A stretch of DNA of 64,000 nt from Streptomyces umbrinus (GTDB taxonomy: Bacteria > Actinomycetota > Actinomycetes > Streptomycetales > Streptomycetaceae), in assembly GCF_030817415.1 (NCBI RefSeq), contig NZ_JAUSZI010000002.1, positions 3,100,001 to 3,164,000 of the forward strand. Reading direction: 5' to 3'. Every line of letters begins with the position of its first letter. Positions within the stretch are counted from its first letter, which is position 1. Both the position numbers and the translations under genes were made by a program. This document shows, in pieces, positions 4,017 to 55,527 of the stretch. The notes beneath the pieces are model-generated. The model was not told where the DNA came from. It saw only the letters and a list, made by a program, of their open reading frames with translations, and searched no databases.

Positions 4017-4060
4017 GTCGGTTCGGCCTGCCTCACCAGTCGGTTCGGCCTACCTCACCA
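4017..4060 (+). repeat. 22-bp tandem duplication between convergent genes
   Basis: Two copies (4017-4038 and 4039-4060) of a 22-bp unit beginning GTCGGTTCGGCCT, differing by one base. The second copy contains the stop codon of the cytochrome P450 gene on the minus strand. No strong terminator hairpin is obvious here. Confidence 0.85.
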
Positions 4061-5281
4061 AGTGACGTGCAGGGTCTGGGGTGAGCGGTGGATCAGGGTC
4101 GGGCGCATGGTGACCGGGTGGTCGTCTGCCAGGCGGAGGGTGGGGAAGCGGGTCGTCAACTGCTCCAGGGTCAGGCGGAGTTGCTCTCTCGCCAATTGGG
4201 ATCCTGGGCACGTGTGCACCCCTAGGCCGAATGCCACGTGGCGGCCCGGGGTGCGGGTGATGTCGAACTCGTCCGGGCGGGGGTGGCGGGATCCGTCGCG
4301 GTTCGCCGCACCGAATGCCACGAACACCGTTGAGCCGGTGGGGAGTTCTGTGCCTGCGAGGGTGATCGCGCGGGTGGTGGTTCGGCGGAAGCCCTGTAGT
4401 GCCGTGTCGTAGCGGGCCGCCTCTTCTATGGCCGCGGGGATTCGGTTCGGCTCTGCGCAGAGGAGGTTCCACTGGGGCGGGTGGCGGAGGAGGTGCAGAA
4501 CCGTCGTGCCGATCAGGGCTGTGGTGGTGAGGTGGCCTGCCAGGAGGAAGTTCTGCAGATGGGCCACCAGTTCGTGGCGTTGGTCGAGTGTCAGGTCGGT
4601 TGCGGGTGGGGGTTGGGGTGTGAGGGAGGTGATCAGTTCTGTGCAGAGGTCGTTCTGGGGGTTCTTGCTGCGGACGCGGGCGAAAGCGTCGAGTGCCTGC
4701 TGCATTGCCACGACGTCCTGGGCTGCTTCTACTTGTTCGGCCTCCGACATGGGGCGGAAGAGCAGTTCCTCTGCTCGGTAGCCGCCGTGTACGGCCTGGG
4801 GGACGTCCTTGGGGTCCAGGCCTACGATCCTGCCGATCACTTCGCCCGGGAGGCGTTGGGCGTACGCCGCCATCAGGTCTGCGTGGCCCTTCTCGGCGAA
4901 GGCGTCGATCAGGGCCGATGCTCGTTCCGCGGCGTACGGGAGTACGGCGGCGACCTTGGCGGGTGACAGGCCTCGTACGATCGGGGCGCGTAGGCGTTGG
5001 TGGTGGGAGCCGTCGGCTGTGACGACCACGGGGCGGCCGCCGAAGCCGCCGCCCAGGACCGCGAGGGCGGCGGGGGCCGGCATCACGTCCGGGCGCAGCG
5101 CGTTAGCCGAGGAGAAGTCGTCCGGGCGGCGGAGGATCTCCCTGACGTCCTCGTCCCTGGCTGCCAGCCAGGCGTCCAGTTCCGGGATGAACGTCAGGCC
5201 TTTGGCCCGCCTTGCGCGCTCGTAGTGGGGGTACGGGTTGCGTTGCAACTCGTCGAGTCTGCCGTGCAGTTCACGGTCCAC
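4055..5281 (-). CDS. Cytochrome P450
   Basis: Bacterial soluble P450 monooxygenase of about 408 residues when started at GTG 5281. Key motifs: I-helix FLLAGHLTTTALIG near residue 250, ExxR as EAAR near 289, and the haem-binding loop FGLGVHTCPG with the cysteine ligand near 356. In the I-helix the usual acid of AGx(D/E)T is leucine, which may alter oxygen activation. An in-frame ATG at 5383 exists but lies inside a dispersed inverted-repeat element, and its first residues recur out of context at the second copy of that element, so I reject it as the start. Neither start has a strong ribosome site. The gene diverges from an SRPBCC protein. No ferredoxin partner is adjacent and the substrate is unknown. 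Confidence 0.9.
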   Translation of the reverse strand: MDRELHGRLDELQRNPYPHYERARRAKGLTFIPELDAWLAARDEDVREILRRPDDFSSANALRPDVMPAPAALAVLGGGFGGRPVVVTADGSHHQRLRAPIVRGLSPAKVAAVLPYAAERASALIDAFAEKGHADLMAAYAQRLPGEVIGRIVGLDPKDVPQAVHGGYRAEELLFRPMSEAEQVEAAQDVVAMQQALDAFARVRSKNPQNDLCTELITSLTPQPPPATDLTLDQRHELVAHLQNFLLAGHLTTTALIGTTVLHLLRHPPQWNLLCAEPNRIPAAIEEAARYDTALQGFRRTTTRAITLAGTELPTGSTVFVAFGAANRDGSRHPRPDEFDITRTPGRHVAFGLGVHTCPGSQLAREQLRLTLEQLTTRFPTLRLADDHPVTMRPTLIHRSPQTLHVTW

Positions 5282-5330
5282 GGGGTCATGGTGCCGGATG
5301 GGGTGGGGTGTGGGTAGGGCGCTTCTGGTC

Positions 5331-5482
5331 CGGTGGGTGGGGCGGGGCCGTGCCGGTATGTCACGTTCGCGACTGCTGGGCATACTGCCCTGAGATTCAT
5401 TGGTGGACGTTGCCAGCGGGAGCTGTACGTCGCGAACGTTGACACACCGGCACGGCCCCGCCCCGCGCGCGTCGGCGTCTGC
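5331..5482. repeat. Large inverted-repeat element, copy A
   Basis: A 35-base left arm (5339-5373) pairs with a 36-base right arm (5429-5464), with one mismatch and one bulged base, around a 55-base spacer. The arms carry GTCACGTTCGCGAC and GTCGCGAACGTTGAC. Flanking bases (CGGTGGGT on the left, GTCGGCGTCTGC on the right) are also shared with the second copy at 41425-41577. The spacer holds a small hairpin, GGGC-ATACT-GCCC. It lies between the divergent P450 and SRPBCC genes. It has no transposase and no clear target duplication. It could be a structured RNA, a palindromic mobile remnant (MITE-like) or a protein-binding site. Confidence 0.9.
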
Positions 5483-5510
5483 TGCGCCATTGAGTGCCTA
5501 CGATCCTGGC

Positions 5511-5951
5511 GTGGTTCAGTTTTGTGTGCGGCGGGACAGTGGCCTCGATGCTGGTGAGGCGTGGCGGCGGCTCACGCTGTGGGAGCGGCATGGGGATGTG
5601 GTGCCGTTGACCCGGATCACTGTTGCCGCGGGGGCGGGGGGTGGGGTGGGATCCGTGTTCGTGGCTCGGACCGGGGTCGGGGCCCTTGCGTTTGATGACC
5701 CCATGGAGGTGGTCCTCTGGCAGCCGCCTCAGGATGGGGGCTCGGGGATGTGTCGGCTCGTCAAGCGGGGTACGTTCGTCACGGGGTGGGCCGAGATCGA
5801 GGTGCATCCGTCTGCGGCTACGGGCACGCGGGTGGTGTGGCGGGAGGAGTTGGTGGTGCGGTTGGCCCCGCGGGCTCTCGATCCCGCTTTGAAGCGGATG
5901 GCTCGGTGGATGTTCGGGCGGGCCGTGGACCAATTGTTGCTGCGTCCCTGA
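5511..5951 (+). CDS. SRPBCC (START-like) family protein
   Basis: A 146-residue protein that looks like the polyketide cyclase/START fold: a helix-grip domain with alternating strands (GVGSVFVARTGVG, RLVKRGTFVTGWAEIEVHP, RVVWREELVVRL) and a long C-terminal helix (ALKRMARWMFGRAVDQLL). Proteins of this fold bind lipids or other hydrophobic ligands; the specific ligand is not visible. GTG 5511 was chosen because the earlier in-frame sequence belongs to the inverted-repeat element. No good ribosome site is evident. It is divergent from the P450, an arrangement that hints at, but does not prove, shared metabolism. Confidence 0.75.
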   Translation: MVQFCVRRDSGLDAGEAWRRLTLWERHGDVVPLTRITVAAGAGGGVGSVFVARTGVGALAFDDPMEVVLWQPPQDGGSGMCRLVKRGTFVTGWAEIEVHPSAATGTRVVWREELVVRLAPRALDPALKRMARWMFGRAVDQLLLRP

Positions 5952-8699: not shown

Positions 8700-8746
8700 C
8701 TCTCGTTCTCCTAACGGTGGTTGGGGTGGCTCGTCGGTCGGGTCGG

Positions 8747-8803
8747 CCCCGCGCCCCGAAGGGGGCGCGGGGAACTGCGCGACCAGCCACGACGGACCCG
8801 CGG
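8747..8803 (+). terminator. Terminator-like hairpin with conserved dispersed tail, copy 1
   Basis: A GC-rich hairpin (CCCCGCGCCCC, GAA, GGGGGCGCGGGG) is followed by AACTGCGCGACCAGCCAC, a tail that recurs in the window near 41.6 kb (twice), 47.1 kb and, in reverse, 59.4 kb. It sits between xdhC and the NCS2 permease. It probably works as a transcription terminator; why the tail is conserved is unclear. Confidence 0.75.
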
Positions 8804-39467: not shown

Positions 39468-39950
39468 CTATTGTCCTTCCAGCCTCAGCAGCTGCAGCTT
39501 TCGTTCCAGGCCGCCCGCGTAGCCCGTGAGCGATCCGTCTGCGCCGATCACTCGATGGCACGGGCGGACGATCAGCAGCGGGTTGGCACCGATCGCTCCG
39601 CCTACGGCCCGCACTGCGGCGCGCGACGCGCCGATCCGTGCGGCGATCTCTCCGTACGTGGTGGTCGCCCCGTAGGGGACGGAGTCGAGGGCGTCCCAGA
39701 CCTGCTCGCGGAACGCGGTACCGCTCGCCTTCAACTCCAGCTCGAACTCCTTGAGTTCACCGGCGAAGTAGGCCGCGAGCTGTTCTCGGGCGTCCCGGAA
39801 GAGCTCGGGCGCGGGGTGCCAGTCCGGCTGGACTGTGCGTCCGCCCTTCTGTCCTGGGACCGAGAGGGACGTCAGGGACCCGGACTCGTCTGCTGTGAGC
39901 AGGAGTTGGCCTACGGGGCTGTCGAGCTGGGCGTATGGGATGTTCGTCAT
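39468..39950 (-). CDS. ogt: Methylated-DNA--protein-cysteine methyltransferase
   Basis: A 160-residue suicide DNA repair protein that moves methyl groups from O6-methylguanine or O4-methylthymine to its own cysteine. The acceptor motif PCHRVIG is near residue 130, and the DNA-binding helix-turn-helix (TTYGEIAARIGASRAAVRAV) with the arginine finger stands before it. ATG 39950 overlaps the stop of the Ada-AlkA gene (ATGA), so the two repair proteins are co-translated. Confidence 0.94.
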   Translation of the reverse strand: MTNIPYAQLDSPVGQLLLTADESGSLTSLSVPGQKGGRTVQPDWHPAPELFRDAREQLAAYFAGELKEFELELKASGTAFREQVWDALDSVPYGATTTYGEIAARIGASRAAVRAVGGAIGANPLLIVRPCHRVIGADGSLTGYAGGLERKLQLLRLEGQ

Positions 39951-41362
39951 GATCGGTGCTCTTCCAGCTCGCTCGCGGTGGGTGGGGTCTGGCCGGCCGC
40001 CCTCAGATGGTGCAGGGCGTAGGAGCGCCAGGGGCGCCAGGCGTCGGGGACGTCCTCGTCCGGTGGTGCCGCGTCGGGGTCGCCCAGGGCCCGGGTGCGG
40101 ATGACTGCCACGGTCCGTGGATCCATGCCGGGCAGGGCGAGCAGCGTGGCCTGCGCCTCCTCGCGGTCGGCACCCGGGTCGAGCCTCAGGCTGCCGTCGG
40201 CGAGCGCTGTGGCGAGGGCGCCGAGCGTGCCGCCCGTCTCCGCGAGTGCGGCCGGCTCGGGGAAGACATGTGTGAGCGTTCCGCAGGGCGCGTCGAGGCT
40301 CTTCCCGTACTCCCGCACGAGGCGCTCGGCCTCGTCCCGGCCGACCAGCGCGCGCACAGCCAGCTCCTCCGGGTCGGCGGCCCCTGGTGAACGCAGTCCG
40401 GGTCTGGCCGCCACCAGCGGCGCGAGTCGCTCGTCGGCTCCCAGGCGTTCGTCCACCGCGTACGGATCGGAATCCAGGTCGAGGAGCCGCCGCAGGCGCT
40501 GCACTGCGGTGGTCAGATCGCGCAGGTCGGTGAGGTGCAGCCTGGCGTCCAGCCAGCCGCCTGCGTGGGCGGAGGCTCCGGACGGGCGTTCGCCGACAGC
40601 CACGATGCCTGTGCCGTACGGCAGCCGCAGGGTCCGGCGGTAGGTACGGAATCCCGCGCCACCGGTCACTTCTTCAACACCGGCGACAGCCTCTGCGGCC
40701 AGCAGATCGAAGACCTCAGCGGCCTGGTACGGGCCGCGGTACGCCAGGCGCAACGGGATCCCCGCCGACGGAGTGGCCGCGCGACGCGAGGCGGCGCCGC
40801 GGCGGGGTGCGGCTGCGCGCAGCTCGGTCGGGGTCGAGGCGTACCCCGTCCGGATCGTGTCGTTGAACTGCCTCACGCTCGCGAACCCGGCCGCGAACGC
40901 GATCTCTGTGATCGGCAGCTCTGTTGTCTGGAGCAGCACCCTCGCGGTGTGGGCCCGCTGGGCCCGGGCCAGGGCCACCGGGCCTGCGCCCACCTCTGCG
41001 GTGAGCTGGCGCTGTACCTGGCGGGCGCTGTAGCCGAGCCGCGCGGCGAGCCCGGCGACTCCCTCGCGGTCCACGACGCCGTCGCCGATCATCCGCATCG
41101 CGCGTCCTACGACGTCCGCGCGTACGTTCCACTCGGCGGAACCCGGCACGGCGTCCGGGCGGCACCGCCGGCATGCTCGGAACCCGGAACTCTGCGCGGC
41201 GGCGGCCGTCGCGTAGAACCGGACGTTCTCGCGCTTCGGCGTCACCGCGGGGCAGCTCGGCCGGCAGTAGATCCCCGTCGTCTCCACCGCGAAGAAGAAC
41301 TCCCCGTCGAACCGGGCGTCCCGGCTCCGCACGGCTCCGTACCTGGTCTCTTCGTCAATCAC
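39947..41362 (-). CDS. Ada-type regulator fused to AlkA-like DNA glycosylase
   Basis: A 471-residue fusion for alkylation damage. The N-terminal Ada metal domain (TGIYCRPSCPAVTPKRENVR and FRACRRCRPD) has the four cysteines that bind zinc and accept methyl groups from phosphotriesters. An AraC-type HTH follows (LPITEIAFAAGFASVRQFND). The C-terminal half resembles AlkA 3-methyladenine glycosylase, but the hairpin motif reads LPGMDPRT instead of the usual LPGIGPWT, and the region of the catalytic Asp is about 18 residues shorter than in E. coli AlkA. Start: GTG 41362 begins the conserved domain but GGAGGG is nearly adjacent to it; GTG codons 8 and 10 codons upstream are alternatives. Followed by ogt. 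Confidence 0.87.
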   Translation of the reverse strand: MIDEETRYGAVRSRDARFDGEFFFAVETTGIYCRPSCPAVTPKRENVRFYATAAAAQSSGFRACRRCRPDAVPGSAEWNVRADVVGRAMRMIGDGVVDREGVAGLAARLGYSARQVQRQLTAEVGAGPVALARAQRAHTARVLLQTTELPITEIAFAAGFASVRQFNDTIRTGYASTPTELRAAAPRRGAASRRAATPSAGIPLRLAYRGPYQAAEVFDLLAAEAVAGVEEVTGGAGFRTYRRTLRLPYGTGIVAVGERPSGASAHAGGWLDARLHLTDLRDLTTAVQRLRRLLDLDSDPYAVDERLGADERLAPLVAARPGLRSPGAADPEELAVRALVGRDEAERLVREYGKSLDAPCGTLTHVFPEPAALAETGGTLGALATALADGSLRLDPGADREEAQATLLALPGMDPRTVAVIRTRALGDPDAAPPDEDVPDAWRPWRSYALHHLRAAGQTPPTASELEEHRS

Positions 41363-41424
41363 CCCTCCAGTCTGCGCCACCGCCACGCGGTCGACTGGCG
41401 GAAATCGGACGTGACGCTCGCCGT

Positions 41425-41577
41425 CGGTGGGTGGGGCGGGGGCGTACCGGTATGTCACGTTCGCGACTGCTGGGCATACGGCCCTGAGTTTCATTGGTGA
41501 CCGTTTCCAGCGGGAGCTGTATGTCGCGAACGTTGACATACCGGCACGCCCCCGCCCCGGGTTGCGTCGGCGTCTGC
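41425..41577. repeat. Large inverted-repeat element, copy B
   Basis: Second copy of the element at 5331, in the same orientation. Left arm 41433-41467, right arm 41523-41558, spacer 55 bases, as in copy A. About 10 substitutions in the 126 bases from arm to arm. One pair changed together: C5348-G5455 in copy A is G41442-C41549 here, which keeps the stem. It lies in the 355-bp space between the Ada-AlkA and rsgA genes, whose remaining part holds two copies of the terminator-like tail. Confidence 0.9.
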
Positions 41578-41598
41578 GGCCCGGTGGAAATTGGCCAA

Positions 41599-41640
41599 GG
41601 GCGCGAGGAACTGCGCGACCAGCCACGGACGGCCCGCAGA
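41599..41640 (+). repeat. Dispersed terminator-tail repeat, copy 2
   Basis: GGGCGCGAGGAACTGCGCGA followed by CCAGCCACGGACGGCCCGCA. Matches the tail of the element at 8747. Here the hairpin part is reduced. Confidence 0.8.
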
Positions 41641-41668
41641 ACCACGCCGGCCTCAGCCCCCACATTCA

Positions 41669-41711
41669 GGGGCGCGAGGAACTGCGCGACCAGCCCCCAC
41701 GCGCCCGCAGA
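41669..41711 (+). repeat. Dispersed terminator-tail repeat, copy 3
   Basis: GGGGCGCGAGGAACTGCGCG followed by ACCAGCCCCCACGCGCCCGC. Variant tail (CCCCCACGC), the same variant as the reversed copy near 17520. It lies just beyond the stop codon of rsgA on the minus strand. Confidence 0.8.
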
Positions 41712-46326: not shown

Positions 46327-47112
46327 GTGACCAGCACCTCCCCACCGGTAGCCCTCCACCACACGGACCACCCCGGCACTGGCCCGGCCCTCCTCCTGGT
46401 TCATGGATGGGGCGGCGACGGCGACGACTGGGCGCCCACCCTCCCGTACTGGCGACACCGCGTGATCGTCCCCGACCTGCGGGGCCACGGCCGATCCCCG
46501 AAGCCGCCGACCGGCTACAGCCCGCGCGACTTCGCCGCCGACCTGGCTGACCTGCTGGGCCGGCTGGACCCGGGCCCGGTGATCGCCGTCGGCCACTCGA
46601 TGGGCGCCCAGGCGGTCACGGCACTCGCGGTCGAACACCCGGATCTCGTACGCGCGTTGGTGGTCGTCGACCCGGCGTATGGAGCGGATGAGTCGGAGGC
46701 CTTGCGCATTCCCCGGGAGCAGGAGGAGCTGCGGAGGGCGGGAGCGGAGTGGGCCGCCCGCTTCGTGGACAGTGCCTTCCGGCCGGGGGTGCATGACCAA
46801 CTGCGCGACCGGCAGCGGAAGTTGATGGCTGCCATGGACCCGGAGGTGCTGGCTCAGTGCCGCGACGGCATGTACCTGGCCCCGGACGCCTTCGGCCTGC
46901 GGCCTGCAACCCGCGCGTACCTGGCGCGCCGCGACTGTCCCGTACTGGGCGTGTACGCCACACCGGCTGCCGCCAACTTCGAGCGCGGCACGCTCGCCCC
47001 ACCCGGCTCCCGGGTGGTGGTCTTCGAGGACTGCGGCCATTACCTGCACGAGGAACGCCCCCGGCAACTGACGTCCCTCGTACAGGAGTGGTCCACGCCC
47101 CTCGCCCCCTAA
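46327..47112 (+). CDS. Alpha/beta-fold hydrolase
   Basis: A 261-residue cytoplasmic hydrolase. The oxyanion strand LLLVHGWGGDGDDW, the nucleophile elbow VGHSMG near residue 98 and the catalytic His in EDCGHYLHEE near 241 are all seen; the acid is likely the Asp region before it. Esterase, lactonase or haloperoxidase-like activity is possible. GTG 46327 is taken because the conserved fold begins after it. Confidence 0.85.
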   Translation: MTSTSPPVALHHTDHPGTGPALLLVHGWGGDGDDWAPTLPYWRHRVIVPDLRGHGRSPKPPTGYSPRDFAADLADLLGRLDPGPVIAVGHSMGAQAVTALAVEHPDLVRALVVVDPAYGADESEALRIPREQEELRRAGAEWAARFVDSAFRPGVHDQLRDRQRKLMAAMDPEVLAQCRDGMYLAPDAFGLRPATRAYLARRDCPVLGVYATPAAANFERGTLAPPGSRVVVFEDCGHYLHEERPRQLTSLVQEWSTPLAP

Positions 47113-47156
47113 GGGGCGCGGGGAACTGCGCGACCAGCCACGGACGACCCGCAGGA
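47104..47156 (+). terminator. Terminator-like hairpin with conserved tail, copy 4
   Basis: GCCCCCTAAGGGGC hairpin followed by GCGGGGAACTGCGCGACCAG and CCACGGACGACCCGCAGG. It overlaps the end of the hydrolase gene (its stop TAA lies in the loop) and borders the stop of the convergent 1499-residue gene, so it can end transcription from both sides. Confidence 0.8.
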
Positions 47157-55334: not shown

Positions 55335-55394
55335 TCCAGAGAAGCGCGCAGGCTGCCGCGGGGAGGGGTGGAACCGGGAAGTCAGGGACGGGCG

Positions 55395-55527
55395 GGGGAA
55401 GTCGGTGCCCGGGCCGCCGTGCCGGCCGGGGAAATCGGTGCCCGGATCGCCGCGTCCGCCGGGGAAGATCGGTGCCCGGGGCCTCGTGCCGGCCGGGGAG
55501 AGTCAGTGCCCGGGTCGCCGTGTCGAG
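55395..55527 (+). repeat. 33-bp tandem repeats overlapping the end of the LacI gene
   Basis: About four units beginning at 55395, 55428, 55461 and 55495, each of the form GGGGAA(A/G)TCGGTGCCCGG plus about 15 more bases. The last unit contains the final codons and stop of the LacI gene, so the gene's 3' end has been amplified outward. Confidence 0.88.

What the first reader, a model, noticed from the sequence alone, without database searches (positions are those of the whole stretch)
5331..5482. Dispersed 152-bp inverted-repeat element with a conserved 55-base centre (two copies)
Copies at 5331-5482 and 41425-41577, 36 kb apart and in the same orientation, share about 92% identity, equal arm lengths (35/36) and equal spacer length (55). 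One stem pair changed on both sides (C5348-G5455 versus G41442-C41549), which keeps pairing. That is what selection on a folded RNA or a DNA cruciform would produce. Both copies are intergenic and next to unrelated genes. There is no transposase. It could be a mobile palindrome, a structured RNA or a protein-binding module.
Basis: partly seen in the sequence, partly recalled or inferred. Interest (0 to 1): 0.78.

Follow-up and report, generated by a model that had tools for sequence, protein, structure and literature searches.

The report
Streptomyces palindromic repeat at gene ends
The two hairpin copies belong to a family of roughly 155-base palindromic repeats seen so far only in Streptomyces, which sit mostly after the ends of genes in the middle of the chromosome and are often found at the same places in different species, where new copies still appear.

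Summary
In detail: both copies exist, with arms of 35/36 nt, a 55-nt centre and 91% identity. They are two of 12 strong copies in this genome, which also holds five weaker relatives. A covariance model finds the family in 51 of 295 genus genomes (own included) and in none of 197 other genera sampled; one genome has about 42 strong copies. Stem covariation is real. In the 26 arm pairs it is almost purely Watson-Crick (2448 of 2496 cells; G-U 9, A-C 20), but seven outer or inner pairs hold 160 G-U cells, so RNA selection is neither shown nor excluded. The element is polar, about 158 bp, with conserved arms and borders and a variable centre. Neighbours: 41 convergent, 74 co-directional, 7 divergent of 122. 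None of 92 strong copies in six chromosomes lies within 1.5 Mb of an end. Many sites are shared between species in the same polarity. In some genomes (G040, G251, G223) copies are nearly uniform; in G000, G125 and G666 plain descent dominates. Best reading: a new REP/BOX/MITE-like interspersed palindrome with rare copying to new sites. The mover is unidentified; a recognisable Y1/RAYT transposase is not required. Cellular function is untested.

The parts
5330..5487 (+). Copy 1 of the element (full extent by covariance model, polar orientation +)
5330..5338 (+). 5' border of copy 1 (family consensus at the left edge CCGGTGGGTGGG, which runs into the arm)
5339..5373 (+). Left arm of copy 1
   Evidence: (inverted match 5339-5373 / 5429-5464)
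5374..5428 (+). 55-base centre of copy 1 (A-type centre, shared by 4 own-genome copies)
5429..5464 (+). Right arm of copy 1
5465..5487 (+). 3' border of copy 1 (family consensus ends GGCTGCGGGT)
41424..41582 (+). Copy 2 of the element (full extent)
41433..41467 (+). Left arm of copy 2
41468..41522 (+). 55-base centre of copy 2
41523..41558 (+). Right arm of copy 2
4055..5281 (-). Neighbour of copy 1: cytochrome P450 gene (5' end towards the element; start approximate)
   Evidence: (PF00067, 4.5e-18)
5511..5951 (+). Neighbour of copy 1: probable SRPBCC/polyketide-cyclase-like gene
   Evidence: PF10604, 5.9e-5, below gathering cut-off; no NCBIfam match
39947..41362 (-). Neighbour of copy 2: Ada/AlkA-type gene (5' end towards the element; start approximate)
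   Evidence: PF02805, PF12833, PF06029
41718..42677 (-). Neighbour of copy 2: rsgA GTPase gene (3' end towards the element; start approximate)
   Evidence: PF03193, TIGR00157

Best explanation
A family of small, non-coding, polar interspersed palindromic repeats (about 155-160 bp: border - arm - variable centre - arm - border), seen here only in the genus Streptomyces. Shown at sequence level: many copies per genome, empty sites in relatives, a recent copy gain, the same intergenic regions and polarity used across species, depletion in divergent regions, core location of the strong copies, and near-perfect Watson-Crick pairing of the arms. Within-genome uniformity is clear in some genomes (G040, G251, G223) and weak in others. 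Inferred: the unit is occasionally copied to new intergenic places by an unidentified trans-acting enzyme that recognises the folded single strand plus its polar borders. Insertions survive mainly behind genes and then descend with the chromosome. The palindrome is kept perfect by template switching, and some copies are overwritten by others of the same genome. When transcribed, the stable hairpin probably acts as a 3'-end barrier (terminator, exonuclease block or RNase III target), a side effect rather than a proven function.
For: Copies and range: strong copies 12 in the own genome, about 42 in G251, 8 in G125, 8 in G666; 51 of 295 genus genomes; 3 of 296 in a phylum sample, all same genus; the 80 listed of 98 named hits are all Streptomyces; no match in viral contigs, plasmids or phages. 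Covariation: 13 of 33 pairs changed on both sides, 96.1% of cells paired versus 38-44% in slid controls. Mobility: the model finds no copy at the copy-2 locus in 28 of 29 other genomes fetched; a G666 copy 94% identical to another G666 copy is missing from G125, G032 and G000, whose flanks are 91-97% identical. Shared sites: of 89 homologous-flank pairs 81 same polarity, 5 opposite, 3 unclear. Uniformity: mean centre identity 0.88 within genomes, 0.72 at orthologous sites, 0.64 at other sites between genomes. Position: 41 convergent, 74 co-directional, 7 divergent of 122; against the window's 28 gaps Fisher p 0.02 for convergent and 0.0004 for divergent; 0 of 92 in the outer 1.5 Mb, 27 expected.
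Against: No mobilising enzyme found: Y1 transposase (PF01797) has no match in 5 of 16 element-bearing genomes, including the one-contig G125. No target-site duplication or exact insertion border could be shown, because the intergenic sequence outside the element does not align. Sharing of sites in one polarity is more than a freely hopping element would give. Homogenisation is not general: within-genome means are 0.71-0.76 in G000, G125, G666, G282 and G095, and orthologous copies of G000, G125 and G666 (0.72-0.96) are about as alike as or more alike than copies of one genome; the overall within-genome mean is raised by G251, which gives 435 of the 786 pairs. One weak relative (10.83 Mb, own genome) does lie within 1.5 Mb of a chromosome end.
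Confidence: 0.67

Rival explanations
1. Structured RNA: a small RNA or 3'-UTR element whose folded RNA is selected (mRNA stability, termination, processing).
For: Very stable fold, strong compensatory changes, location behind genes, conserved centre motifs in the G000/G125/G666/G032 group; over all 33 model pairs G-U cells (169) exceed A-C cells (23).
Against: In the 26 uninterrupted arm pairs G-U does not exceed A-C (9 versus 20); most of the G-U excess comes from two border pairs (76 and 49 cells), and the alignment was fitted to a model that prefers G-U to A-C; in co-directional regions sense and antisense orientation are similar (41 versus 33); the centre is not conserved across the genus; no match in 244 of 295 genomes; only sub-threshold Rfam hits.
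Confidence: 0.2
2. DNA site for a chromosome-organising or recombination protein: the arms are the recognition sequence, fixed sites are functional, and the centre is free to vary.
For: Arms conserved across subfamilies with different centres; core location of strong copies and polarity following replication in 64 of 92; shared sites in one polarity.
Against: Patchy presence (51 of 295) and from one match in some genomes to about 42 in G251; empty sites and a recent gain; gene orientation and shared sites confound the replication bias.
Confidence: 0.12
3. True REP/RAYT system: hairpins mobilised by a Y1 (HUH) transposase encoded in the same genome.
For: Palindrome at gene ends; PF01797 matches in 11 of 16 element-bearing against 3 of 16 genomes without a model match (the G068 match is a weak partial one).
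Against: No PF01797 match in G125, G032, G254, G163, G277; in 30 Y1 loci only 7 loose arm matches at up to 3 mismatches, not followed further; no transposase among the 25 commonest of 167 neighbour families.
Confidence: 0.08

Closest known systems
REP/BIME elements of enterobacteria and Pseudomonas
   Same: Palindromic, dispersed, extragenic, often between convergent genes (PMC1525189: 21-65 bases, frequent location between convergent genes; passages read).
   Different: About 158 bp rather than 21-65; five element-bearing genomes have no Y1 match; different sequence, polar borders on both sides.
BOX / RUP / SPRITE repeats of pneumococcus
   Same: Modular with a variable middle (BOX layout partly recalled), stem-loops, over-represented between convergent genes, suggested to be parasitic and non-autonomous (PMC3049150, passages read).
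   Different: Found here only in Streptomyces; GC-rich; near-perfect arms of at least 35 bp.
MITEs
   Same: Short, non-coding, inverted terminal arms, multi-copy, empty sites (definition partly from PMC3049150 passages, partly recalled).
   Different: No parent IS with matching ends and no target duplication found here; the arms make up much of the element.
Bor, Ype and Efa repeats (stem-loop families)
   Same: Repeated stem-loops; Ype and Efa preferentially close to 3' ends of coding regions (PMC1590033, passages read).
   Different: Other genera; whether their sites are shared between species was not seen in the passages read.

Membership tests
REP/RAYT | Palindromic repeat in extragenic space at many places | tested here: met
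REP/RAYT | Unit length 21-65 bases | tested here: not met
   about 158 bp by border conservation; length range from PMC1525189
REP/RAYT | Cognate Y1 (RAYT) transposase in the genome, flanked by the repeats (recalled definition) | tested here: not met
   no PF01797 match in 5 of 16 positive genomes; only 7 loose arm matches in 30 Y1 loci
MITE | Short non-coding element with terminal inverted repeats | tested here: met
MITE | Target-site duplication at the insertion | tested here: inconclusive
   empty sites found but the flanking intergenic sequence does not align
MITE | Autonomous parent element with the same ends | tested here: inconclusive
   in the named loci 103 left arms have a partner within 200 bp and 7 do not; two of the 7 are at contig ends and two lie upstream of a complete copy; no parent seen, not exhaustively searched
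BOX/RUP-like small interspersed repeat | Enrichment between convergent genes | tested here: met
   41 of 122 convergent versus 3 of 28 gaps over 60 bp in the window, Fisher p 0.02; divergent 7 of 122 versus 9 of 28, p 0.0004; copies not independent and from other genomes than the background
Structured RNA family | Covariation with G-U tolerance on one strand | tested here: inconclusive
   9 G-U versus 20 A-C in 26 arm pairs, but 169 versus 23 over all 33 pairs
Structured RNA family | Defined transcript | not testable with these tools
   no expression data held

The most novel reading that the evidence does not exclude
The repeats are the substrate of an undescribed hairpin-homing system in Streptomyces: a trans-acting enzyme recognises the folded strand with its polar borders, overwrites existing copies at fixed chromosomal sites and occasionally seeds new ones, so that sites are inherited while, in some genomes, the sequence is rewritten throughout.
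Probability: 0.2. Interest if true: 0.8.

Novelty: new member of a known kind. Interest (0 to 1): 0.5.

Why it matters
Small palindromic repeats are known from several other bacteria; the listings of my searches showed no such family described in Streptomyces (open-licence library only, and some listings showed only the best 10-15 papers). This family combines shared chromosomal sites with near-uniform copies in some genomes and plain descent in others, which makes it a handle on how repeats spread and are homogenised in a linear chromosome. It is also a caution: covariation in a near-perfect palindrome is not by itself evidence for a functional RNA. The model and 125 placed copies make these questions directly testable.

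Tried and rejected
Rfam at gathering threshold: nothing; at E-value 1, 14 sub-threshold matches, 13 of them miRNA hairpins, taken as generic hairpin similarity. tRNA/tmRNA: none. Viral contigs (pattern), plasmids and phages (copy 1 only, 181 bases): none. RAYT; the difference 11 of 16 versus 3 of 16 is kept as a lead. Of the 7 loose arm matches in Y1 loci, five are one identical string; not followed further. Neighbour proteins of 58 copies in four genomes (116 proteins) were scanned with Pfam and PADLOC; only the top 25 of 167 and of 50 families were shown, none a transposase, so a single neighbouring transposase is not excluded. A defence association was not pursued: the commonest PADLOC model matched 6 of 116. 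Sense-terminator idea: weakened by similar sense and antisense numbers in co-directional gaps (41 versus 33). An ori-symmetric pattern of similarity was found in the own genome (r -0.75, permutation p 0.0014) but not in five others tested, so it is not used. The first gene-caller run (72 loci: 26 convergent, 39 co-directional, 1 divergent, 6 unclear) was replaced by a codon-trained one on 125 loci; neither calls the probable gene right of copy 1, so the divergent count is at least slightly low. A loose script check of the rsgA-ada loci flagged L214 and L232 with 8 mismatches each and missed L226; it was replaced by the covariance model, which finds only L226.

Caveats on counts: in the 295-genome scan 10 candidates per genome were scored, so copy numbers there are minima. 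The 92 copies are all strong copies of G000, G125 and G251 but only the best ten of G040, G223 and G282. In one search, 4 of 125 loci gave no core and were left out. The 26 arm pairs leave out 7 of the 33 model pairs; those 7 hold 160 of the 169 G-U cells. In one search the number of further pair types (20) is not above shuffles (mean 22.9), and pairs with two-sided change (13) only slightly (mean 10.5, 14 of 500 shuffles as high). In one search one site group is joined by a single one-sided 263-base match. Loci are top-scoring copies, many orthologous to each other, so tests are not on independent events. On checking I raised the RNA rival from 0.15 to 0.20 and lowered the best explanation from 0.70 to 0.67, because of the left-out G-U pairs and the uneven homogenisation.

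Full report
What was checked. The two stretches were read directly and compared. The inverted match gives arms of 35 and 36 bases at 5339-5373/5429-5464 and 41433-41467/41523-41558, each with a 55-base centre; the copies are 91% identical over 155 bases. Both fold with z-scores of -8.1 and -6.5 against dinucleotide shuffles.

It is a family. A blastn search of the window's own 12.4-Mb genome found three further close copies (91-92% to copy 1, copy 2 among them) and others that share the outer arm but not the centre; a second search with one of those found more. A model search gives 12 strong copies. It also gives five weaker relatives of about 140 bp near 5.42, 5.43, 7.54, 7.56 and 10.83 Mb, with diverged arms, a different centre and the same kind of borders, each next to the D1 repeat named below. 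Aligned in one polarity, the copies share borders as well as arms: CCGGTGGGTGGG before the hairpin and GGCTGCGGGT after it, with variation. The covariance model R1 was built from 18 copies of five genomes.

Distribution. R1 finds the family in 51 of 295 genomes of the genus sample (own genome included; 10 candidates scored per genome, so copy numbers are minima). In a phylum sample it is found in 3 of 296 genomes, all of the same genus, and in none of the other 197 genera. A pattern scan of named genomes gave 98 stretches, of which the 80 listed are all Streptomyces, for example S. dioscori, S. albicerus, S. albiflavescens, S. phaeochromogenes and S. aurantiacus. Nothing was found in viral contigs, plasmids or phages. 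G251 carries about 42 strong copies.

Covariation and what it means. On 18 sequences, 13 of 33 consensus pairs have changes on both sides; 96.1% of cells pair, against 38-44% when partners are slid, and 65 cells carry two-sided changes against 22.9 in shuffles. The number of further pair types is not above shuffles (20 versus 22.9). On 96 copies, the 26 uninterrupted arm pairs give 2448 Watson-Crick cells of 2496, 9 G-U, 20 A-C and 19 other; 14 of 26 pairs occur in two or more Watson-Crick types. RNA selection should tolerate G-U on the transcribed strand; here it is rare and not above A-C, the G-U of the other strand. Against this, the 7 remaining model pairs (five at the outer border, two beside an inner gap) hold 160 of the 169 G-U cells, so over all 33 pairs G-U exceeds A-C by 169 to 23. 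Two conserved border positions account for 125 of these, and the alignment was fitted to the model. Template switching in replication is a published way to make and maintain perfect stems (PMC8794818; abstract and opening read in the outline).

Where the copies lie. With a codon-trained gene caller on 125 loci, 122 have both neighbours: 41 convergent, 41 sense and 33 antisense co-directional, 7 divergent. In the window's own 28 gaps over 60 bp the numbers are 3 convergent, 16 co-directional and 9 divergent; Fisher p is 0.02 for convergent and 0.0004 for divergent. The element therefore prefers gene ends and avoids divergent regions, although copy 1 itself probably lies between divergent genes. 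In six chromosomes with located dnaA, none of 92 strong copies lies within 1.5 Mb of an end (27 expected), and 64 of 92 point with replication (p 0.0002 if independent, which they are not entirely). The weak relative at 10.83 Mb in the own genome is within 1.5 Mb of an end.

Shared sites. After masking the element, flanks were compared between genomes: 89 locus pairs have homologous flanks, 81 with the same polarity (64 of them on both sides), 5 opposite (four of them two-sided) and 3 unclear. The sites form 24 groups of two to seven loci. The five opposite pairs involve either the rsgA-ada site of copy 2 or another G254 locus. Within a shared region the exact distance to the genes and the sequence between differ.

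Uniformity within genomes. Mean centre identity is 0.88 within genomes (786 pairs), 0.72 at orthologous sites (71 pairs) and 0.64 otherwise (6403 pairs); 121 of 125 loci gave a core. This hides two regimes. Copies are nearly uniform in G040 (0.96), G251 (0.94) and G223 (0.90), and distant orthologous copies are no more alike than others, as expected of homogenisation or fresh spread. In G000, G125 and G666 the within-genome means are 0.74-0.75 and orthologous copies are 0.72-0.96 alike, as expected of plain descent. Even there, two G125 copies at different sites are identical in their core, while the G666 copies at the same two sites resemble each other, which suggests replacement of single copies.

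Empty sites. At the copy-2 site the model finds an element in only one of 29 other genomes fetched around ada (G254, opposite polarity); G251, not among these 29, also has one there. In L233 and L238 the rsgA side was not reliably aligned. A G666 copy that is 94% identical to another G666 copy is absent from G125, G032 and G000, whose flanks are 91-97% identical. This is a recent gain, or less simply several losses. The sequence around the element does not align, so no target duplication can be claimed.

Mover. Y1 transposases (PF01797) match in 11 of 16 element-bearing genomes and in 3 of 16 genomes without a model match, but five element-bearing genomes, including the single-contig G125, have none. 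Among 116 neighbour proteins the 25 commonest of 167 Pfam families include no transposase. No larger autonomous copy was seen.

Explanation. The most economical account is a REP/BOX/MITE-like interspersed palindrome that is occasionally copied to new places, survives behind genes, is inherited at its sites and in some genomes has become uniform. The enzyme, the single-strand recognition, the overwriting step and any effect on mRNA ends are inference. REP, BOX and other stem-loop repeats are described as concentrating at gene ends (PMC1525189, PMC3049150, PMC1590033; passages read). A transcript survey of S. coelicolor and E. coli notes short RNAs from palindromes, many in 3' UTRs, mostly considered decay intermediates (PMC4681348, passages read). 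The listings of my paper searches showed no description of this family; the library holds open-licence papers only.

Noticed in passing
window 8746-8801, 41582-41637, 41653-41708, 47097-47152: A second palindromic repeat, called D1 here (core GGGGCGCGGGGAACTGCGCGACCAGCC), occurs four times, two copies directly beside copy 2; it is frequent in the relatives and often sits in the same rsgA-ada gap.
   Followed up: partly
L333-L337 (own genome near 7.54, 5.43, 5.42, 10.83, 7.56 Mb): Five weaker relatives of about 140 bp with a different centre and diverged arms but similar borders, each next to a D1 repeat: probably a further subfamily.
   Followed up: partly
L251-L258, L292-L300 flanks: In G040 and G227 several copies are embedded in short degenerate arrays whose units resemble the element's own borders (GCCGGTGGGTGG... 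on the left, GCGTGCGTCCGCGACTGCGGGTGAGTGGGG on the right).
   Followed up: no
own genome, 12 copies: The four A-type copies lie 2.8-3.1 Mb either side of dnaA and the others within 2.0 Mb; similarity follows distance from the origin (r -0.75, p 0.0014) here but not in five other genomes.
   Followed up: partly
window 55374-55499: Three overlapping direct-repeat units spaced 33-34 bases, GC-rich.
   Followed up: no
G032 contigs C219, C265, C533, C335: Element arms lie at or near contig starts, so draft genomes may under-count the family.
   Followed up: no
16 element-bearing genomes and 16 without a model match: PF01797 (Y1 transposase) is more common in element-bearing genomes (11 of 16 versus 3 of 16), without being required.
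   Followed up: partly
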